The notes under the pieces are model-generated. The model did not search any database. It was not told the DNA's origin and saw only the letters and a program-made list of their open reading frames with translations. 10,728 nucleotides of DNA from Microcaldota archaeon (GTDB lineage: Archaea > Micrarchaeota > Micrarchaeia > Micrarchaeales > CABMGC01). The position numbers and the translations under genes were made by a program. The stretch lies in contig JAJZKH010000017.1 of assembly GCA_021850955.1 (NCBI GenBank), positions 1 to 10,728 of the forward strand, read 5' to 3'. Each line of letters begins with the position of its first letter. The stretch's first letter is position 1. Below are positions 2,640 through 10,341 of the stretch, piece by piece.

Positions 2640-3686
2640 TTATTCAAATACCTTTTTATACACTTCAATAATTTTAGGTACAACCTTATCGGCTCTACAT
2701 TCCTCAGCATCCAAATAAGCTTTTTCAACGTCTACTTTTTCCCATGATCTATTTTTTATAATCTCTAATAAGTTATCATCCTTCCACAGCAATGTGTTCC
2801 TTTTCACTAATTGCGGGATATCTCCATCATAGCATAATACAGGTACTTTACATGCCTTTGCTTGTATTATTGGTAGACCAAATCCTTCAATTGTTGATGT
2901 GGATAGATATGCGTCGAACTTGGATAGGGTGTCTACGAGTTTATTTTCTGGCAAAAATCCAAAGTACTTGATGTTTGTGTCCTTAATTAAATTTTGAAAA
3001 GGAAAACCTTTACCGTATATATGAAATTCTATATCATTATTTTTGAATTTTTTAAAATGTTCTATAAAAAGTTTTAATTTAGGTGTTTTATTAAATCCCT
3101 GTCCATTAATGTACCCTATAATTCGTTTTTTTGATTTATTTGTATATGTTCCCGTTACAAAGAATTTTTCAGGTATTATGTATGGAACTATCCCTATATT
3201 ATCTCCACTAACCCCAAAATGCTTTATTATTTTTTCCTTAGTGGTCTCTCCAGAAGTTATTACGTAATCATAATTTTTAGGATTATGGTCTCTACTTAAT
3301 CTTTTTTTAAGATATTTTGTTGCAACTCTATTTGTAATAAAATTCTTAGTTCTGTTAATATTAAAATTTGGTTCTAGATAATATAAATCATGAATAGTTA
3401 CGATTTTTTTCCTTGCTAAATTCAAAAAAAACGGCGGTATTACCCCTGGGTATAATATGTGTACATTCTTATTTCTTATTGCGTTTTTATTTTGTATAAA
3501 ATATAAATATCTGTTTAAGGTCCCAAACCCTATATATGAACTTTTTATCGCTTTTTTTATTGCTAAATCTATTTTTTCAATTTTAATTTTATCACTTTTG
3601 TTTAATCCTTCAAATAGTAATAGGCTACATCGGGGCCAACTTAATCCGATATCATTAAACCCATTCCCAATCAAAGTTACATCCAT
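2640..3686 (-). CDS. GT4-family glycosyltransferase, EX7Q variant (copy 1)
   Basis: This 348-residue protein is a GT-B-fold retaining glycosyltransferase of family GT4. The N-terminal acceptor domain includes TIHDLYY (97-103), a common GT4 motif. The C-terminal donor domain begins near RIIGYINGQ (188-196) and contains YGKGFPF (224-230) and IEGFGLPIIQAKACKVPVL (266-284). In the normal EX7E motif the second acid would be at 275, but here it is Gln (E267, Q275). The gene starts 7 bp after the gmd stop codon, so both are probably on one transcript. The last 92 residues differ at only 8 positions from the gene at 4754-5794, while the N-terminal 90 are hardly alignable. Sharing the donor half suggests the same nucleotide-sugar donor with different acceptors, which is inference. 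Whether the Gln enzyme is active is open. Confidence 0.85.
   Translation of the reverse strand: MDVTLIGNGFNDIGLSWPRCSLLLFEGLNKSDKIKIEKIDLAIKKAIKSSYIGFGTLNRYLYFIQNKNAIRNKNVHILYPGVIPPFFLNLARKKIVTIHDLYYLEPNFNINRTKNFITNRVATKYLKKRLSRDHNPKNYDYVITSGETTKEKIIKHFGVSGDNIGIVPYIIPEKFFVTGTYTNKSKKRIIGYINGQGFNKTPKLKLFIEHFKKFKNNDIEFHIYGKGFPFQNLIKDTNIKYFGFLPENKLVDTLSKFDAYLSTSTIEGFGLPIIQAKACKVPVLCYDGDIPQLVKRNTLLWKDDNLLEIIKNRSWEKVDVEKAYLDAEECRADKVVPKIIEVYKKVFE
2642..2809 (-). repeat. Direct repeat copy 1 (3' end of GT4 gene)
   Basis: This 168-bp block aligns without gaps to 4756-4923 with seven mismatches (at 2673, 2747, 2748, 2767, 2775, 2781 and 2805). A perfect run of 73 bp covers 2674-2746. Beyond 2809 the identity falls to roughly 80% over the next 60 bp and lower further on. 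Both copies are the 3' ends of GT4 genes in the same orientation. Confidence 0.93.
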
Positions 3687-3693
3687 AGTTTTA

Positions 3694-4713
3694 TTATAAA
3701 CTGTAAATCAAATCATTTTCTACCATTATTTTAACCAAATCCTCAAATTTAGTTTTTGGTTTCCACCCAAGCACTCTTTTTGCTTTTGAATAGTCACCTA
3801 AGAAGTTTTCTGCTTTAATTGGTCTAAAAAATTCCTTGCTGACTTTTACTAATATTTTGTTGCTGCCTTTTTCTTTTCCTACTTCGTTTATTCCTTTTCC
3901 TTCCCAATTTATTTCTTTGTTTATGCATTTGAATGATTCCTCTACAAATTCTCTTACAGTGTGCTGTTTTCCAGTGGCTAAGACAAAATCATCTGCTTTT
4001 TTCTGTTGAAGCATTAAATGCATGCCATCAACAAAATCTTTTGCATACCCCCAATCCTTTCTTGAATTTAAGTTTCCTAATACTAGTGGTTCTTTATCTC
4101 CTTTACTTATTTTAGCTACTTTCATTGATATTTTTCTAGTCACGAATTCTGGTCCACGCACTTCTGATTCGTGGTTAAATAAAATACCATTGCAGAAGAA
4201 TAAGTTATAGGCTTCTCTATAAGATTTAGCAGTCCAATAGCCAGCCAATTTTGATATTGCATACGGGCTATTAGGCATAAATGGAGTTTCTTCATTTTGC
4301 GGAGCGGTTGTTACTTTTCCAAAAAGTTCCGATGTAGCCGCAAAGTATAATCTTGTATTTTTAGACTTCTCTTTTACAGCATTTAATATATTCAAAGTAC
4401 CCATTATGTTGTTGTGGTAGGTAAATGTAGGGTTTTCGAAGCTGTACCCAACAAATGACTGCGCAGCTAGATGATAAACCTCATCAGGTTTTATTTTTTC
4501 TATAGTACTAACTATAAAGTTGTTATCTGTTATATCCCCATAGTAAATTTTTATTTGTTTTCTTTCTTCAGGATCAAGTTTCTCTAATGTACCTTGGCGC
4601 ATACTGCTATTACGTCTAATTATCCCAGAAACTTCGTATCCCTTTGATAATAACAATTTTGATAGAAAGTATCCATCCTGACCCGTTATCCCAGTTATTA
4701 AAGCTTTTTTCAT
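3694..4713 (-). CDS. gmd: GDP-mannose 4,6-dehydratase
   Basis: This 339-residue enzyme converts GDP-D-mannose to GDP-4-keto-6-deoxy-D-mannose, the branch point to GDP-rhamnose, GDP-fucose and GDP-perosamine. It belongs to the extended short-chain dehydrogenase family. TGITGQDG (7-14) is the NADP-binding loop, and HLAAQSFVGYSFENP (81-95) is typical of GMD. The catalytic residues are visible as T127, E129 and the pair Y151/K155 in YAISK. NSRKDWGYAKDFVDGM (216-231) is another GMD signature. The usual HESPxRG stretch reads HESEVRG here (181-187). Length is normal for the family. The ATG at 4713 has a TATA-like box 26 bp upstream. The gene sits between the two twin GT4 genes, suggesting that they use a deoxysugar made from its product. 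No reductase or aminotransferase that would complete the donor is in the window. Confidence 0.93.
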   Translation of the reverse strand: MKKALITGITGQDGYFLSKLLLSKGYEVSGIIRRNSSMRQGTLEKLDPEERKQIKIYYGDITDNNFIVSTIEKIKPDEVYHLAAQSFVGYSFENPTFTYHNNIMGTLNILNAVKEKSKNTRLYFAATSELFGKVTTAPQNEETPFMPNSPYAISKLAGYWTAKSYREAYNLFFCNGILFNHESEVRGPEFVTRKISMKVAKISKGDKEPLVLGNLNSRKDWGYAKDFVDGMHLMLQQKKADDFVLATGKQHTVREFVEESFKCINKEINWEGKGINEVGKEKGSNKILVKVSKEFFRPIKAENFLGDYSKAKRVLGWKPKTKFEDLVKIMVENDLIYSL

Positions 4714-4734
4714 ATATCACTTACAAAATCTTTT

Positions 4735-4742
4735 TTTAAATA
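4735..4742 (-). promoter_or_regulatory. TATA-like box for gmd
   Basis: On the minus strand this reads TATTTAAA, centred about 26 bp before the ATG at 4713, which predicts a leaderless gmd mRNA. It lies in the 40-bp gap after the preceding GT4 gene. The same element occurs at 2623-2630 behind the twin GT4 gene. Confidence 0.5.
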
Positions 4743-4753
4743 CCTTTTATAGC

Positions 4754-5794
4754 TCATTCAAATACCTTTTTATACACTTCAATAATCTTAGGTACAACCT
4801 TATCGGCTCTACATTCCTCAGCATCCAAATAAGCTTTTTCAACGTCTACTTTTTCCCATGCCCTATTTTTTATAATCTCTGATAAGTTGTCATCATTCCA
4901 CAGCAATGTGTTCCTTTTTACTATTTCTGGTATTTCTCCGTCGTAGCATAACACTGGTACTTTGCATGCTTTGGCCTGTATTATAGGCAATCCAAATCCC
5001 TCAACAGTAGAAGTAGATAGATAAACATCAAATGAATTATAAGTTTCTACAATTTTTTCTTCAGGCAAAAATCCAAGATACTTTATTCTTTGGTCGTCTT
5101 TTATCAAATCATTAAAGGGAAATCCTTTACCATATATTTGAAATTCTAGAGAATTATCCTCCATTTCTTTAAATATTTTAATGAATTTCCTTAGCTTGTC
5201 TGTTTTATTTTCAGTAAAATTATTTATGAAACCTATTATTTTTTTGCCTTCTTGCTTTCTATATTTTATTGGTTGAAATTTATCGGGTATTATACTATTA
5301 CTTACTTCAATTTTGTTTTTGTCGACATCAAAGTCATTTACCAGTTTTTCTATGATTTTATTATTTATTGCAAATACAAAGTCATAACGTTTAATCCTTG
5401 TATAATCATCTTGCTGTTTTTTAATTAGCTTTTTTGCCAAAATTTTATTCAAATACGACAATTTTTTTAATGTTTCTTTTATATAGTTTTCATCAAAAAT
5501 GTAGAAATCATGGATAGTAACTATTTTATTTTTTGGTAGCTCCAAGTAGGGTTTTGGTATTACATTTGGGGCCATCGCATGTACAAGTTTGTTTTTTATT
5601 TCATTGTGTTTAAGAAGAAAAAATAGTGTATTTTTAGCTTCTCTTCCAAGTCTAATATTTTTTAATATATCATTAGTTGCTATCTTTTTTACGTCAATAC
5701 CTTTTTTAAGTAGTTCATTATATAATCTTATTGAATAGGTACTTACACCCCTGCCATTTTCCTTAAAAGTATAATTTATTAAATTTATATTCAT
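4754..5794 (-). CDS. GT4-family glycosyltransferase, EX7Q variant (copy 2)
   Basis: This 346-residue GT-B glycosyltransferase is the twin of the gene at 2640-3686. The N-terminal domain has a glycine-rich loop, ENGRGVSTYS (12-21), of the kind that lines the GT4 active-site cleft; copy 1 lacks it in this form. TIHDFYIF (93-100) follows. The donor domain has IIGFINNF (186-193), YGKGFPF (221-227) and VEGFGLPIIQAKACKVPVL (264-282), with E265 present and Gln at 273 in place of the second Glu of EX7E. The last 92 residues match copy 1 at 84 positions. The upstream gene ends 32 bp away and gmd begins 40 bp downstream, so cotranscription is plausible alongside its own weak promoter. The likely role is adding a sugar to the glycan with the same donor as copy 1, which is inference. 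Confidence 0.86.
   Translation of the reverse strand: MNINLINYTFKENGRGVSTYSIRLYNELLKKGIDVKKIATNDILKNIRLGREAKNTLFFLLKHNEIKNKLVHAMAPNVIPKPYLELPKNKIVTIHDFYIFDENYIKETLKKLSYLNKILAKKLIKKQQDDYTRIKRYDFVFAINNKIIEKLVNDFDVDKNKIEVSNSIIPDKFQPIKYRKQEGKKIIGFINNFTENKTDKLRKFIKIFKEMEDNSLEFQIYGKGFPFNDLIKDDQRIKYLGFLPEEKIVETYNSFDVYLSTSTVEGFGLPIIQAKACKVPVLCYDGEIPEIVKRNTLLWNDDNLSEIIKNRAWEKVDVEKAYLDAEECRADKVVPKIIEVYKKVFE
4756..4923 (-). repeat. Direct repeat copy 2 (3' end of GT4 gene)
   Basis: This is the partner of 2642-2809, with 161 of 168 bases identical and a perfect 73-bp run at 4788-4860. The similarity extends through the stop codon (TGA here, TAA in the other copy) and, with two small indels, past the TATA-like box in the flank. 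The two copies bracket gmd and the first GT4 gene, so recombination between them would delete about 2.1 kb. Confidence 0.93.
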
Positions 5795-5826: not shown

Positions 5827-6852
5827 TCAGATTTTTATTAATCCCTCCACAAAATTATCAAAATCTTTTTTGAACTTGGGCAGCACTTTATCGGGATTAC
5901 AATTTTCTGCCAAACTTTTCGCCAATTTTGATAACTCGATTTTTTTATTTTCAGGTAATTTTAAATAATACTCTATACTTTTTGCTAAACTGTCCGCATT
6001 TGTATCCACTATAAACTCTTTTCCAAGCTTTTCTACGAAGACTTTTGCACCAGTATCCTTAGACACTATTGCTGGTAATCCCCCTAGCATCGCTTCAACT
6101 ATACTAAGTCCAAAGGCTTCTCCTCTAGAAGGATGAATATAAAGTGCGGAATCTTTTATGTATGAAAATAAAGAAGGCACTGGTCCTTGGAATTTTAGAC
6201 CATCTATATTCTTATATTTTTCTATAACTTCTTTCTTTTGTTTTCCAATCACAGTTAATTTAGCGTCTTTGTATTTGCTTTTTATGATTTTAAATGCATC
6301 TATTGAAATGTCTAGTCCTTTGTACTTTACCCTTTCATTTCCTATCGTTAAAAGGTTATGCGAATTTAAATTAGGGATAGTTCCATCATTTAATTCATTG
6401 TAAATCTTTGGCAATATTGGTGTGTAAACAACCACCTTTTTTGCATTAGGCATCCATTTTGTTAATAGTTCCGCTTGCCAGTTTCCATGGCACACAAAGC
6501 CGTCAACCTGTTTTAAAAAGTAGTTTAGTGTGAGTTTTTTTATTCCTTTAGTTTCTCCGTTTAATAAACGGTAAAATATCGGCTCTCCCACGTATTTTAT
6601 TATTTTTGTTTTTCTGTTGATTATATGCAATTTTCTTGCTATAATTGGAAGGATAAAATTACCTTCTATAAGGTATCCATCATAGTTTTTGGGAAGATAA
6701 AATATAGTTAATAAGCTTTTTATTGTGTTTTTAAATGATTCGCTAAAGAAATTTGTTATCTTTACCTTTTCTTTTATTCCTAAGTAGTCAGCCAATAGTA
6801 CTGTATTTGGGTGGCCATTTACGTATATAAATGCTATCTTATCCCTATCCAT
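5827..6852 (-). CDS. GT4-family glycosyltransferase
   Basis: This 341-residue protein is a GT-B glycosyltransferase with an intact GT4 signature. NLLTIGNERVKYKGLDISI (166-184) opens the donor domain; K177 and the following GLD match the usual Arg/Lys-containing phosphate-binding segment. EAFGLSIVEAMLGGLPAIVS (245-264) is a complete EX7E motif with E245 and E253. The N-terminal domain is atypical: it lacks the TIHD motif of its neighbours and has IIKYVGEPIFYR (84-95) and GFVCHGNWQAE (118-128). It is unlike the twin GT4 genes downstream, so it should add a different residue. The ATG at 6852 is set by a TATA-like box 27 bp upstream in a 38-bp divergent promoter region. The next gene begins 32 bp after its stop, so this may be the first gene of a four-gene unit running to 2640. 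Confidence 0.86.
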   Translation of the reverse strand: MDRDKIAFIYVNGHPNTVLLADYLGIKEKVKITNFFSESFKNTIKSLLTIFYLPKNYDGYLIEGNFILPIIARKLHIINRKTKIIKYVGEPIFYRLLNGETKGIKKLTLNYFLKQVDGFVCHGNWQAELLTKWMPNAKKVVVYTPILPKIYNELNDGTIPNLNSHNLLTIGNERVKYKGLDISIDAFKIIKSKYKDAKLTVIGKQKKEVIEKYKNIDGLKFQGPVPSLFSYIKDSALYIHPSRGEAFGLSIVEAMLGGLPAIVSKDTGAKVFVEKLGKEFIVDTNADSLAKSIEYYLKLPENKKIELSKLAKSLAENCNPDKVLPKFKKDFDNFVEGLIKI

Positions 6853-6854
6853 TT

Positions 6855-6864
6855 TTTATATAAA
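6855..6864 (+). promoter_or_regulatory. TATA-like box for the plus-strand GT-A gene
   Basis: TTTATATAAA is centred about 31 bp before the ATG at 6891, predicting a leader of only a few bases. It begins 3 bp from the ATG of the divergent gene, so it also lies in that gene's transcription start region. Confidence 0.55.
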
Positions 6865-6874
6865 TCTGGGTTAC

Positions 6875-6883
6875 TTTATAAAT
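6875..6883 (-). promoter_or_regulatory. TATA-like box for the minus-strand GT4 gene
   Basis: TTTATAAAT on the plus strand (ATTTATAAA on the minus strand) is centred about 27 bp from the ATG at 6852, matching a leaderless start. It lies between the other gene's TATA box and that gene's ATG at 6891, so the two promoters are interlocked. Confidence 0.55.
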
Positions 6884-6890
6884 AGAATAT

Positions 6891-7757
6891 ATGCCAGAGG
6901 AATTAGACGAATTGAACAGATTGTTTACCAGCAAGAACGTAGAGGATGTTATAAAATTCTATGATCATTTTGATACTCCAGATCAGTTAATAGAATGGAT
7001 GAAAAATAGACCAAGCGCTCCTATGAAAATCTATGAAGTAGAAGGAGAGAAAGACTTAGTAGTTATTATACCAACTAATAATCATAATGGCCAGTTTGCT
7101 AAAAATTGTAAAGATGTTTTCAAAGGATTACAGATAGTTTTTGTAGAAAGCAACGGGCCTTTCTTCAACTATGCAAGAAGCTGCAATTACGGCTTTAAAT
7201 ATGCTTTGAAATACAATCCTAAATGGATAATTTTGAGTGGGCATGATGTGTCCAATCTAGATGATATATCTAATTTAAAGTATAACCTTTTAAAATTCAC
7301 AGAATATGATTTGTTAATTTTGAGTCCAAAATTTGGGCATTCATTTTTTTCTAGTATTTCTAAAAAAACTTTTTTGGTGGATACATATTGGAAGTTCAAG
7401 GACAACGAGTACTTTAATTTATTTAAAAAATTTGGTATAACCTATTTTACGCCAACTCTTAAATTAAGAAGAAGACTTTTTTATAAGCCAATTTACAAAT
7501 TCTTTAGTTTTACCAATTTTGCATGTTTCAATTATTCTCTGGTTAAGAAACTAGATGGTAATATTTTTGATCCGGTTTTTATTAACGGTAGCGAAGATAT
7601 CTTCTTTTGTTACAAGTCTTATATTAATAAGTACAAACTTAAGTTAATAGATTATAATTTAGGAAATTTAGATAGATCTACTTTAGGCACAGGGAGAATA
7701 AGGCTTCTTCATTCTTTTGCATCGTTGGTGTATTTAAATTTTTTGTTTAATTATTAA
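6891..7757 (+). CDS. GT-A-fold glycosyltransferase (GT2-like)
   Basis: This 288-residue protein is probably a sugar transferase of the GT-A type. After an N-terminal segment of about 55 residues with LIEWMKNRPSAP (33-44), the fold starts with VVIIPTNNHNG (57-67). IVFVESNGPFFNYARSCNYG (82-101) follows, where the Asn/Ala-rich part resembles the FNxARNxG segment of GT2 enzymes. The position of the DXD metal motif reads SGHDV (116-120), with only one acid (D119). GSEDIFFCYK (233-242) supplies the ED catalytic-base motif. I have an impression of similar archaeal proteins annotated as glycosyltransferases, but could not check it. It is the only plus-strand gene in the cluster and has its own interlocked promoter, so it may be controlled separately. 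It converges on the sulfatase-fold gene with 59 bp between stop codons. Donor and acceptor are unknown. Confidence 0.75.
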   Translation: MPEELDELNRLFTSKNVEDVIKFYDHFDTPDQLIEWMKNRPSAPMKIYEVEGEKDLVVIIPTNNHNGQFAKNCKDVFKGLQIVFVESNGPFFNYARSCNYGFKYALKYNPKWIILSGHDVSNLDDISNLKYNLLKFTEYDLLILSPKFGHSFFSSISKKTFLVDTYWKFKDNEYFNLFKKFGITYFTPTLKLRRRLFYKPIYKFFSFTNFACFNYSLVKKLDGNIFDPVFINGSEDIFFCYKSYINKYKLKLIDYNLGNLDRSTLGTGRIRLLHSFASLVYLNFLFNY

Positions 7758-7816: not shown

Positions 7817-9145
7817 CTAATTGATTTTTGGTATTATAAATTCCTCTTTGCCTTTGAATATCTCCAATTCTTCCAGCAATTCCTTTGCCTTCTCTTTGTT
7901 ATCTTCAACTTTTAGCTCTTTGTTGCCTTCTAAGAATTCTTCGATTATGCCGTCAGTCCCGCTTACAGTTAGCTTAAATCCGTCTTTGTATACCGCTTTT
8001 CTCAGCTTTTCATACGTTTTCTTCACGTATTCTTCCCGGTGTTTGTACCCGCCGGGTAAAACAATAACTGCCCCATAGGCTTCGCTGAAAGTTGTTTCAG
8101 AGTAAACTGAGGAATCATCACCGCCGTCTAAAACATCTTTTATGAGTTTTGGCAGGTAAACCAAGTTCTGATACCCTTTTTTAGCCTCGAATTTTTTGTT
8201 GCCTGGGTATTTTATTATCATCGGTATTCTAATTAGTTCATCATAGAGGTAAGTGCTGTGCAGCATATATCCATGCTCATTTATTGCCTGTCCGTGATCG
8301 GAGGTTACTATTATCATCGTGTTGTCGTATTTTCCCGCCCTTTTCAGCGTTGAAATCAGTTTACCTATCTGCTCATCTAGGTATTCCATCTCTGCTATGT
8401 ATTCATTTCTTATGTTTTTTATCGAATTCTGGCTCATCGGCTTTATGCCGGTAACATTGTCCCATACTTCTTTTGAATTGTAGTTTCTGTATGGCTCGTG
8501 AACCTCCAAAAAGTTGATAAACCTGAAGAACTTGCTTTCCCAGTTTCCATTTGAAAGCAGCTTGTTAGTAAGTTCAGCGCCCTTATCCAAGGGGAAATTT
8601 ATAACTTCGCTGATTAATTTTTCTCTTTTACGTAATTTAGCAAATTCAAATATCTTTCCAAATTTGCCTTGTTTTATGAGTTTTAATGCGATTTCTTTTG
8701 GGCTTGCTCCTAACCTCCGGGCTTCCTGGAATATTGGGTCTTCCTTGCTTACCGGGAAGGGATCTATCATGAAGAAATTCTGGAAGCCGATATCAAATGC
8801 AGTTTGAGTGGAAACCATTGGATTGTTGGAAATTCCTAGGGTGTTATATCCCTTATTTGAAAAGTATTCTGCAAGCCTTTCAGCCTTTAGGTCCAAATTG
8901 AATTTAGTCAGATCCAAAAGCTTGTCCTTTTGAGTTTCATGTACTTTGTGTTCGTTTAGATACAAACCAGTAAACAATGAAACATGTGAAGGAAATGTCC
9001 ATGGAGAAGGAGCTATCGCATTTTCATAAACAACAGCATCTTCTTTAAGTTTTAATAAGTTAGGCGTTTTAGCTTCACCGCCGTAGATCTGCATTATGTC
9101 CTTTCGTAAACTGTCACAAACTATCAGCAAAACGTCTGGTTCCAT
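7817..9145 (-). CDS. Sulfatase/alkaline-phosphatase-superfamily hydrolase or transferase, Thr nucleophile
   Basis: This 442-residue protein has the alkaline-phosphatase-superfamily core. LLIVCDSLRKD (6-16) gives the first metal ligand D11. SPWTFPSHVSLFTGLY (47-62) is the nucleophile loop. VHEPYR (215-220) and SDHGQAINEHGY (282-293), with D283 and H284, supply further ligands, and LHSTYLYDELIRIPMIIKYP (295-314) is typical of sulfatase-like proteins. In true sulfatases the loop is C/S-x-P-x-R, whose first residue becomes formylglycine; here the aligned residues are T50-F-P-S-H54. Thr is the nucleophile in the phosphate-transfer branch (LtaS and EptA types), so a phosphodiesterase or phosphotransfer role on glycans is at least as likely as sulfate removal. 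No signal peptide or membrane segment is visible, suggesting a cytoplasmic protein. It follows the GT4 gene at 9177-10190 with a 31-bp gap, probably as an operon. Confidence 0.85.
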   Translation of the reverse strand: MEPDVLLIVCDSLRKDIMQIYGGEAKTPNLLKLKEDAVVYENAIAPSPWTFPSHVSLFTGLYLNEHKVHETQKDKLLDLTKFNLDLKAERLAEYFSNKGYNTLGISNNPMVSTQTAFDIGFQNFFMIDPFPVSKEDPIFQEARRLGASPKEIALKLIKQGKFGKIFEFAKLRKREKLISEVINFPLDKGAELTNKLLSNGNWESKFFRFINFLEVHEPYRNYNSKEVWDNVTGIKPMSQNSIKNIRNEYIAEMEYLDEQIGKLISTLKRAGKYDNTMIIVTSDHGQAINEHGYMLHSTYLYDELIRIPMIIKYPGNKKFEAKKGYQNLVYLPKLIKDVLDGGDDSSVYSETTFSEAYGAVIVLPGGYKHREEYVKKTYEKLRKAVYKDGFKLTVSGTDGIIEEFLEGNKELKVEDNKEKAKELLEELEIFKGKEEFIIPKIN

Positions 9146-9176: not shown

Positions 9177-10190
9177 TTAGCTTAATAGCTTTTTGTACTC
9201 TTCTATAAGAATTGCACGGCATTTATCCCATGAAAATTCTTCCTTAACTTTTTTTGCTTTTTCTGCAAAATCTTTTTGCAGTTCCTTGTAATCCTTTGTT
9301 ATTATATCATCTAGTTTGTCTATTTCAACAGCATATTTTTTGACTTCCTCAGGTATAACTGCATCCTTGTATATGAAAGATGGTATACCGCAGGCTATGC
9401 ATTCCAGTAACGGCAAGCCGAAGCCCTCATATGAAGTAGGGTAGACAAAGTAGTCAAAGCCGTTTATTACTTTTACTATCTCTTCTTCAGGTATTTTCTC
9501 CTTAAAGATTACACTGCCGAATTTTTCGTATTTTTTCTTTAGAAGCGGGTAATCTTCATTGTTTCCGAATATCACTAGCTTAAGCTTTGCATTTAACGAA
9601 GAGGCTATGAAGTCTTCAATAAGCTTTTCAACTCTTTTTCTCCTGTTGAAACCGCCAAAGTAACCTATTATTCCTTCTTTTTTGCTTTCCAAAGGCTTGA
9701 ATTTTTCTTCTATGCCCAAGTTATCAACGATAATTTTTCCGGGGTCGGTTTTAAGTATGTTTATTAATTCATCCCTTGTTTGGGTACTGTTTACCATTAT
9801 AGTGTCCGCTCGTTCAACGGCAAACTTAAATTGCTTTCTAAATGAAATCCCGCGTGCGGTGCCGTACACTCCCTTTACCTTCATTGTGCCGAAAACTGCA
9901 AGGTCATGCACTGTAAGGATAACTTTGCGTTTACTTAATTCCTTAGTTTTAACCATGACTTCAGGCTGCGTGAAATGTAGAACTTTGCCAAGCTTGTCGG
10001 CATTCTTTTCAAGTACTTTTTTCCGTCGGTAAAGCTTGTTTAATAGCTTGTTAGAAAGTCCTTCGTTGCTAAGGCTTTTTGAAAAGTCAACTACGTTTTT
10101 TATCTCCTTTATCTTAGAAATCTCATAGTTATATCTGGGTATGCCCCCTTTGCTAGGATCCAAAGTCTCAGATATAAGCGTCACTTCCAT
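9177..10190 (-). CDS. GT4-family glycosyltransferase
   Basis: This 337-residue GT-B enzyme carries a full GT4 signature. The N-terminus has DPSKGGIPRYNYEI (11-24), the glycine loop found near the acceptor site. LTVHDLAVFGTM (92-103) and MVNSTQTRDEL (132-142) complete the first domain. The donor domain starts with GIIGYFGGFNRRKRVEKLIE (173-192), includes the basic RRKR patch, and contains YEGFGLPLLECIACGIPS (254-271) with both acids of EX7E present (E255, E263). That contrasts with the Gln variants at 2640-3686 and 4754-5794. The ATG at 10190 has a TATA-like box 27 bp upstream. It is followed by the sulfatase-fold gene after 31 bp, so the two are likely cotranscribed. Acceptor and donor are unknown; its length is slightly short for the family but complete. 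Confidence 0.9.
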   Translation of the reverse strand: MEVTLISETLDPSKGGIPRYNYEISKIKEIKNVVDFSKSLSNEGLSNKLLNKLYRRKKVLEKNADKLGKVLHFTQPEVMVKTKELSKRKVILTVHDLAVFGTMKVKGVYGTARGISFRKQFKFAVERADTIMVNSTQTRDELINILKTDPGKIIVDNLGIEEKFKPLESKKEGIIGYFGGFNRRKRVEKLIEDFIASSLNAKLKLVIFGNNEDYPLLKKKYEKFGSVIFKEKIPEEEIVKVINGFDYFVYPTSYEGFGLPLLECIACGIPSFIYKDAVIPEEVKKYAVEIDKLDDIITKDYKELQKDFAEKAKKVKEEFSWDKCRAILIEEYKKLLS

Positions 10191-10258: not shown

Positions 10259-10341
10259 GCTGGGTTGGCTGAGCGGTTAAAGCGCCGGTCTCGAGAACCG
10301 GTTTCCGAAAGGATGCGTAGGTTCGAATCCTGCACCCAGCG
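10259..10341 (+). tRNA. tRNA-Ser (anticodon CGA)
   Basis: The cloverleaf is readable directly. The acceptor arm GCTGGGT pairs with ACCCAGC, and the discriminator is G. The D arm is GCT/AGC with loop GAGCGGTTAA. The anticodon arm CCGGT/ACCGG holds loop CTCGAGA, giving anticodon CGA for the codon TCG. The long variable arm (TTTCCGAAAGGAT) marks a class II tRNA, as expected for serine. The T arm is GTAGG/CCTGC with loop TTCGAAT. CCA is not encoded and no intron is present at position 37/38. The gene lies between the glycan cluster and the next coding gene. Confidence 0.96.

What the first reader, a model, noticed from the sequence alone, without database searches (positions are those of the whole stretch)
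2642..4923. Near-identical 3' ends in two GT4 genes whose 5' halves have diverged
The last 168 bp of the genes at 2640-3686 and 4754-5794 match at 161 positions, with a 73-bp perfect run. Identity falls stepwise towards the 5' ends: about 80% just beyond, then weak, and the first 90 residues are hardly alignable. In GT-B enzymes the C-terminal half binds the nucleotide sugar and the N-terminal half the acceptor. The pattern fits gene conversion or domain shuffling that keeps one donor site while the acceptor half changes, a possible mechanism for glycan variation.
Basis: partly seen in the sequence, partly recalled or inferred. Interest (0 to 1): 0.72.

Follow-up and report, generated by a model that had tools for sequence, protein, structure and literature searches.

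The report
Gene conversion between neighbouring glycosyltransferase genes
Two neighbouring sugar-transferring enzyme genes of an uncultured archaeon share an almost identical tail, most likely because one copied that stretch from the other, and relatives of these genes look cut and re-joined in the same half of the protein while the other half drifts apart.

Summary
In detail: 161 of 168 nt match at the stated coordinates, with a 73-nt perfect run. Genes A (2640-3686) and B (4754-5794), minus strand, are GT4/GT-B enzymes of a family whose named close relatives are mostly MAGs titled Parvarchaeota or Nanoarchaeota. Synonymous divergence decides: dS between A and B is 1.4-2.3 over residues 1-296 and 0.10 over 297-348, while dN falls smoothly. 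So the identity gradient is protein constraint, and the last ~165 nt are a recent conversion tract. Two other genomes carry such tracts between neighbouring copies, also in the C-terminal domain. Counting A/B itself, 3 of 8 linked pairs have one, against 0 of 25 unlinked same-genome and 0 of 1020 different-genome pairs (threshold chosen afterwards). Proteins from other assemblies look mosaic, e.g. 40% identical before residue 139 and 98% after. The recombination reading is supported. 'Keeps one donor site' is only partly so: the A/B tract lies beyond the donor motif, while the other two tracts cover it. Glycan variation is inference.

The parts
2640..3686 (-). gene A, GT4 glycosyltransferase, 348 aa
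   Evidence: ORF; PF00534 49.7 bits, cut-off 26.4; AF2 model pLDDT 92.4, GT-B matches
4754..5794 (-). gene B, GT4 glycosyltransferase, 346 aa, paralogue of A (52% aa identity)
   Evidence: ORF; PF00534 54.5 bits; identity
2640..2804 (-). conversion tract in A (3' end, about residues 295-348 and stop)
   Evidence: changepoint 165 nt from the end; dS 0.10 over residues 297-348; 46 of 49 shared residues use the same codon, p 0.0002
4754..4918 (-). conversion tract in B (same block)
2805..2981 (-). A residues 236-294, with EGFGLPIIQ (position of the E-X7-E motif, second residue Gln): alike in A and B by selection, not by the recent exchange
   Evidence: dS 2.27 (236-275) and 1.80 (276-296) with dN 0.22 and 0.065
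3694..4713 (-). GDP-mannose 4,6-dehydratase gene between B and A (40 nt after B, 7 nt before A)
   Evidence: TIGR01472 441 bits, cut-off 415; PF16363; spacing

Best explanation
A and B are old, strongly diverged paralogues of one GT4 family found mainly in Parvarchaeota/Nanoarchaeota-titled archaeal MAGs. SHOWN: their last ~165 nt became nearly identical far more recently than the rest of the genes separated, with an edge near codon 297. The same kind of tract occurs between linked, same-strand copies of the family in two other genomes, each time in the C-terminal (donor-side) domain. INFERRED, mechanism: ectopic gene conversion during repair or replication between nearby direct copies, seeded in the one part of these genes that stays alike, the conserved EGFG...KRNT stretch. 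That stretch keeps giving enough homology for new exchanges, while the N-terminal half is too diverged to recombine and drifts. INFERRED, effect: the linked enzymes keep an interchangeable C-terminal module, and exchanges between strains attach it to different N-terminal halves, which in GT-B enzymes mostly bind the acceptor.
For: dS A/B 1.38, 1.82, 2.27, 1.80 for residues 1-180, 181-235, 236-275, 276-296, then 0.10 for 297-348; dN 0.72, 0.43, 0.22, 0.065, 0.024. Best stretch of same-codon positions: A/B residues 295-348, 46 of 49, p 0.0002; G004 residues 267-303, 37 of 37; G006 residues 261-299, 30 of 32 (alignments). G004 tract dS = dN = 0 between saturated flanks. 147 GT4-like genes of 19 relative genomes and the window: score >= 12 in 3 of 346 testable same-genome pairs and 1 of 7103 testable different-genome pairs (Fisher p 0.0004). 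Pairs of at least 35% identity: linked same-strand 3 of 8, unlinked same-genome 0 of 25, different-genome (35-60%) 0 of 1020. B's tail is nearer to A's (93%) than to those of its 13 closest relatives by N-half (61-84%), and the C-terminal data reject those 14 as a clade (AU p 0.007). Close alleles part company at residue ~318 (P0002/P0007 97% then 77%); P0028's residues 318-348 equal P0021's while its residues 291-317 equal those of P0002, P0005 and P0007.
Against: The score threshold (12) was chosen, and A/B itself is one of the three cases (without it 2 of 7 linked pairs). By p < 0.005 the same-genome excess is smaller: 5 of 346 against 34 of 7103. A weaker same-genome stretch in G006 lies outside the C-terminal domain (residues 146-208, 13 of 14 codons, p 0.001), so 'confined to the C-terminal domain' rests on the three strong cases. 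Five of 8 linked pairs show no tract. N-terminal data do not reject A and B as sisters (AU p 0.18), and two of three N-clades tested on the C-terminal data were not rejected (p 0.14, 0.16). In the triplet with the KMA_Bin10 gene the whole-gene excursion tests were not significant (p 0.05, 0.18, 0.08). The mosaic proteins are metagenome predictions. Direction of the exchange is undecided.
Confidence: 0.85

Rival explanations
1. Plain tandem duplication with purifying selection on the C-terminal domain and little on the N-terminal half; no recombination.
For: The stretch 236-292 is 56-79% identical between A and every relative compared, and dN falls smoothly along the gene.
Against: Selection on the protein does not lower dS from 1.8 to 0.10 at one point. 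The G004 tract has no difference at all between saturated flanks. Shuffled codon columns never give runs over 39 nt, observed 73.
Confidence: 0.04
2. The shared 3' end entered one or both genes by recombination with DNA of another strain, rather than from the neighbouring gene.
For: Between-strain mosaics are seen in proteins. Short low-dS patches link B (255-275, dS 0.30) and A (276-296, dS 0.59) to the KMA_Bin10 gene. One strong different-genome tract was seen in another kind of GT4.
Against: Among the pairs tested, the strong tracts of this family are between linked copies of one genome (3 of 8 linked, 0 of 25 unlinked, 0 of 1020 between genomes). The nearest DNA to the block found in 32 relative genomes is 83% identical, with dS 1.7 over 297-348.
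Confidence: 0.1
3. Assembly artefact: a false join at a shared sequence.
For: Metagenome-type data. In relatives, contigs or scaffolds break in this domain (a KMA_Bin10 contig ends at EGFG, UBA446 has a run of N there).
Against: Eight differences lie on both sides of the perfect run, so this is not one sequence used twice. P0001, 100% identical to A over its full length, is recorded on a contig of at most 3170 bases, so not the 10.7-kb stretch of this window.
Confidence: 0.03
4. A programmed variation system with silent cassettes and a dedicated recombinase, like pilin or hsdS shuffling.
For: C-terminal-only copies exist in two relatives (G004:C64 1014-1277, G020:C7 from about 163). Tails differ between otherwise near-identical alleles.
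Against: Inverted repeats of 25 nt or more in the window are only 25-33 nt at 71-76%. No recombinase by Pfam or NCBIfam among the 9 main proteins of the window. No truncated copy in the window.
Confidence: 0.05

Closest known systems
Ectopic gene conversion between paralogues of one genome (e.g. H. pylori sabA/sabB; passages of PMC9973278)
   Same: Short tract of one paralogue copied into another in one genome.
   Different: Here the genes are glycosyltransferases of uncultured archaea, the untouched parts are at or near saturation at synonymous sites, and the strong tracts lie in one domain.
Segmentally variable genes, with glycosyltransferases as one class (PMC387263, passages)
   Same: Conserved donor-binding part, variable acceptor-binding part.
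   Different: That paper sets such genes apart from shuffled domains; here recombination tracts and N/C mosaics are seen on top of the difference in conservation.
Vertebrate UGT1 cluster (PMC1885805, passages)
   Same: One constant C-terminal donor domain combined with many N-terminal acceptor domains.
   Different: [quoted passage not shown] here separate genes with DNA exchange. No homology of mechanism is claimed.
Within-gene recombination in archaeal glycosylation genes, Haloferax aglJ, aglD, aglB (PMC5867893, passages)
   Same: Recombination inside archaeal glycosylation genes.
   Different: Described there between clades and strains; not as conversion between paralogues of one genome, nor tied to one domain, in the passages seen.

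Membership tests
GT4 glycosyltransferases (GT-B fold) | Pfam Glycos_transf_1 above its curated cut-off | tested here: met
   A 49.7 and B 54.5 bits, cut-off 26.4
GT4 glycosyltransferases (GT-B fold) | two-domain GT-B fold over the whole chain | tested here: met
   [not shown]
GT4 glycosyltransferases (GT-B fold) | E-X7-E motif (recalled) | tested here: inconclusive
   first Glu E267 invariant in the 60-row alignment; the second position is Gln in A and B (EGFGLPIIQ), Glu in the G004 and G006 copies; the motif is recalled and not taken as strictly defining
Ectopic gene conversion tract | sharp-edged stretch of high identity at synonymous sites between paralogues | tested here: met
   dS 1.80 to 0.10; tract p 0.0002
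Ectopic gene conversion tract | excess within genomes and between linked copies | tested here: met
   3 of 8 linked, 0 of 25 unlinked, 0 of 1020 between genomes; threshold set afterwards, A/B counted among the 3
Ectopic gene conversion tract | one-way (non-reciprocal) transfer | not testable with these tools
   needs close relatives with the state before the exchange
Programmed shuffling systems (pilE/pilS, invertible hsdS; recalled) | dedicated recombinase or repeat elements at the locus | tested here: not met
   no such protein family among the 9 main window proteins; no strong inverted repeats of 25 nt or more
Programmed shuffling systems (pilE/pilS, invertible hsdS; recalled) | silent partial copies and variants within one population | tested here: inconclusive
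   C-only copies in two relatives, none in the window; population data not available

The most novel reading that the evidence does not exclude
In these archaea a GT4 family works as a combinatorial kit: an N-terminal acceptor half (to about residue 139), a donor segment and a C-terminal cap (from about 318) are separately exchangeable, reassorted by conversion between linked copies and by recombination between strains, so that surface glycans change by new acceptor/donor combinations without new enzymes having to evolve. It would be a recombination-based counterpart of the vertebrate UGT1 arrangement.
Probability: 0.3. Interest if true: 0.75.

Novelty: new variant of a known kind. Interest (0 to 1): 0.5.

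Why it matters
Acceptor- and donor-binding halves of GT-B enzymes are known to differ in conservation; whether nature also reassorts them is less clear. Here is a small family where tracts, edges and mosaics can be read directly, and where the module idea can be tested with a handful of cloned genes. It also warns that trees of such glycosyltransferases, and annotation by their conserved C-terminal half, can mislead, and that assemblies may break there.

Tried and rejected
Viral origin or copies: in the viral-contig scan 369 stretches matched a pattern, 111 encode a relative, 80 were kept; identity 24-51% in the best segment, most matches short (one, L062, spans residues 11-283 at 24%). No close relative; not pursued.

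Further copies of the block: 6 of 32 genomes have a DNA match to the 191-nt query at E <= 1e-5, best 83%. That best one is protein conservation (dS 1.7, dN 0.05 over 297-348), so it is not counted as an exchange.

Whole-gene excursion tests on the triplet A/B/KMA_Bin10 were not significant (p 0.05, 0.18, 0.08). A test of same-label neighbours did show clustering in residues 251-348 (p 0.0001 for all sites, 0.0035 for third positions) and less in 1-250 (p 0.022 and 0.45). Used only as a hint of older exchanges.

Constraints tested on trees: N data reject P0013+P0036 (p 1e-5), P0002+P0007+P0017 (9e-40) and P0019+P0024+P0035 (8e-8) as clades, but not A+B (0.18); C data reject the group of B and 13 others (0.007) but not P0004+P0024 (0.14) or P0035+P0036 (0.16). 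The three rejected N groupings were picked from the C tree after seeing it, so their p values are optimistic. The C tree has few well supported branches (7 starred of 37), and A and P0039 are long branches in the N tree.

Split contigs: the 97% match between the start of G004:C9 and the end of G004:C69 is probably one gene broken between contigs; dropped.

GT4 set: built from the 147 PF00534 places; one weak place (G003:C18) was not fetched. 531 same-genome and 10200 different-genome pairs, of which 346 and 7103 had the 40 shared identical residues needed; the rest were dropped before the count. The order-level search returned the same 32 genomes as the family-level one.

Literature: nine searches; their listings (titles and starts of abstracts; searches list 20 of 51, 15 of 20 and 10 of 11 papers) showed no paper on conversion or module exchange in archaeal GT4 paralogues. 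Of six papers only passages were seen. The library lacks most subscription journals. Recombination of Helicobacter futA/futB and of Neisseria lgt genes is recalled, not found here.

Full report
WHAT IS THERE. The window holds a glycan cluster read mostly from the minus strand: GT2 (402-1376), FkbM methyltransferase (1558-2355), GT4 A (2640-3686), GDP-mannose 4,6-dehydratase (3694-4713), GT4 B (4754-5794), another GT4 (5827-6852), an unassigned plus-strand ORF (6891-7757), a sulfatase-family protein (7817-9145) and a further GT4 (9177-10190). No whole genome is held for the window. In the species genomes scanned, the 18 closer matches of the family (L001-L018) lie in MAGs titled Candidatus Parvarchaeota or Nanoarchaeota and one titled Thermoplasmata; the other 15 matches are weak and bacterial. 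A few of the protein relatives carry names such as Parvarchaeota, Thermoplasmataceae or Thermodesulfobium MAG. The closest gene matches in those loci are the dehydratase at 83% in FK_Sedi_A_Bin.204 and the sulfatase at 82% in UBA446. So the window most likely comes from a Parvarchaeota (ARMAN-type) archaeon; that these live in acid mine drainage is from passages of PMC7779479 and recall, and for this window it is inference.

OBSERVATION. 161 of 168 nt match at the stated coordinates, 73 in a row; with the stop codon it is 160 of the last 168. Shuffling the codon columns of the A/B alignment 5000 times never gives a run over 39. The best changepoint is 165 nt from the gene end, giving 2640-2804 and 4754-4918. 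Flanking DNA is unlike.

SYNONYMOUS SITES DECIDE. By Nei-Gojobori counts dS between A and B is 1.38, 1.82, 2.27 and 1.80 for residues 1-180, 181-235, 236-275 and 276-296, and 0.10 for 297-348 (3 synonymous differences in 31 sites). dN falls steadily: 0.72, 0.43, 0.22, 0.065, 0.024. So there are two layers. One is a gradient of protein constraint shared by the family: 236-292 is 56-79% identical between A and every relative compared. The other, in A/B, is a recent exchange of the last ~165 nt.

RECURRENCE. With the family profile, 23 of 32 genomes of one GTDB family have a match at E <= 1e-30, and 17 of the 32 list two or more places (in G012 one gene interrupted by N is counted twice). A scan for stretches of same-codon positions among identical residues gave three outstanding same-genome pairs: G004 (37 of 37 codons, residues 267-303, score 21.3), G006 (30 of 32, 261-299, 14.4) and the window pair (46 of 49, 295-348, 13.0). 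Of 44 same-genome pairs 4 had p < 0.01, of 1192 different-genome pairs 10, best score 11.1; the fourth same-genome pair (G006, residues 146-208, 13 of 14 codons, score 9.2) is not in the C-terminal domain. In G004 the tract has no difference (118-nt perfect run), starts exactly at the first Glu codon of EGFG and is flanked by unlike DNA. I then collected GT4-like genes from 19 relative genomes and the window: 147 genes, 531 same-genome pairs of which 346 could be tested, 10200 different-genome pairs of which 7103 could be tested. Score 12 or more: 3 of 346 against 1 of 7103 (Fisher p 0.0004). At p < 0.005 the excess is smaller, 5 of 346 against 34 of 7103. The one different-genome case is in another kind of GT4, near the N-terminus (G020/G023, 29 of 29 codons). 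By distance, for pairs of at least 35% identity aligned over more than 200 residues: 3 of 8 same-strand pairs within 6 kb, 0 of 25 other same-genome pairs, 0 of 1020 different-genome pairs of 35-60% identity (p 3e-7 against other genomes, 0.010 against unlinked pairs). The score threshold was set after and A/B is one of the three, so read the p values as a guide.

MOSAICS IN THE WIDER FAMILY. Two protein searches gave 83 and 186 relatives (120 of the latter listed), and a third on the tail alone 45. Of 2774 pairs compared, 26 have N-halves (1-180) under 45% identical and tails (293-348) of 84% or more; pairs with N-halves of 80-89% have a median tail identity of only 82%, and those of 90% or more only 84%. 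Examples: P0002/P0017 40% before residue 139, 98% after; P0002/P0007 97% before 318, 77% after; P0030/P0032 87% before 314, 46% after. P0028's residues 318-348 equal P0021's, while its residues 291-317 equal those of P0002, P0005 and P0007. Trees of the two halves disagree in part (results for and against in Tried and rejected). The C-terminal data reject the group of B and its 13 closest N-half relatives as a clade (p 0.007); the N data do not reject A+B (p 0.18), so A and B may well be true sisters. DNA of these proteins was out of reach, and chimeric assembly cannot be excluded for any single one. Short low-dS patches join B (255-275, dS 0.30) and A (276-296, dS 0.59) to the KMA_Bin10 gene, elsewhere dS is 1.29 or more: possible traces of older exchanges.

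WHERE THE TRACTS LIE IN THE ENZYME. The AF2 model of A (pLDDT 92.4) is a GT-B fold. The A/B tract covers strand 299-301 and helices 306-312, 314-317, 320-328 and 332-347, the end of the C-terminal domain; the donor motif EGFGLPIIQ (267-275) lies before it. The G004 and G006 tracts cover that motif. Tract edges lie at 261-267 and 295-303, and a C-terminal-only fragment in the G004 array starts a few residues before EGFG. The motif name is recalled; 'N half acceptor, C half donor' is stated for GT-B relatives in passages of PMC387263 and PMC1885805.

MECHANISM. Shown: local, recent, sharp-edged homogenisation between linked direct copies, in the conserved part of the gene. [quoted passage not shown] Donor and recipient cannot be told: at the A/B differences in the tract KMA_Bin10 sides now with A, now with B. 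The dehydratase between A and B also follows a family gene directly in FK_Sedi_A_Bin.204 (L005) and 2.4 kb downstream of one in DBS2-5.bin35 (L011), which makes a GDP-deoxysugar donor a reasonable guess (inference).

VERDICT. A real recombination tract, part of a recurrent pattern. Gene conversion itself is a known process; its recurrence in the donor-side domain of an archaeal GT4 family, with mosaic alleles, was not seen in the listings of nine paper searches. New variant of a known kind, interest 0.5.

Noticed in passing
L261 (G004:C64) 1014-1277 and 6525-6941: Three full family copies on one strand with a C-terminal-only copy (87 aa) beyond one end and an N-terminal-only copy (138 aa) beyond the other.
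   Followed up: partly
L231 (G020:C7) about 163-591: C-terminal-only copy of the family (about residues 213-349) shortly after a tRNA-Gln gene at 36-109.
   Followed up: partly
window 10259-10341: tRNA-Ser (cga) gene on the plus strand beside the glycan cluster; a possible island border.
   Followed up: no
window 6891-7757: Plus-strand 288-aa ORF with no Pfam or NCBIfam match but relatives near family genes in L003 (52%), L004 (28%) and twice in L018 (34-38%): an unassigned glycan-cluster protein.
   Followed up: no
L232 (G020) and L237 (G023): Different-genome GT4 pair with 29 of 29 identical codons near the N-terminus in otherwise diverged genes (63% aa): a candidate for exchange between species.
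   Followed up: no
L003 12932 and L016 about 386-548: A KMA_Bin10 contig ends at EGFG of a second copy, and the UBA446 scaffold has a run of N over the same domain: the conserved domain may break assemblies.
   Followed up: partly
window genes A and B in the protein database: B's 90% cluster is recorded on 8 contigs, A's on 1, although the genes are about 1 kb apart; A may be present in only some strains.
   Followed up: no
L006/L122 and L139 (G006), residues about 146-208: A weaker same-codon stretch between two unlinked G006 copies, outside the C-terminal domain (13 of 14 codons, p 0.001); L007 of G007 shows the same stretch with L139.
   Followed up: no
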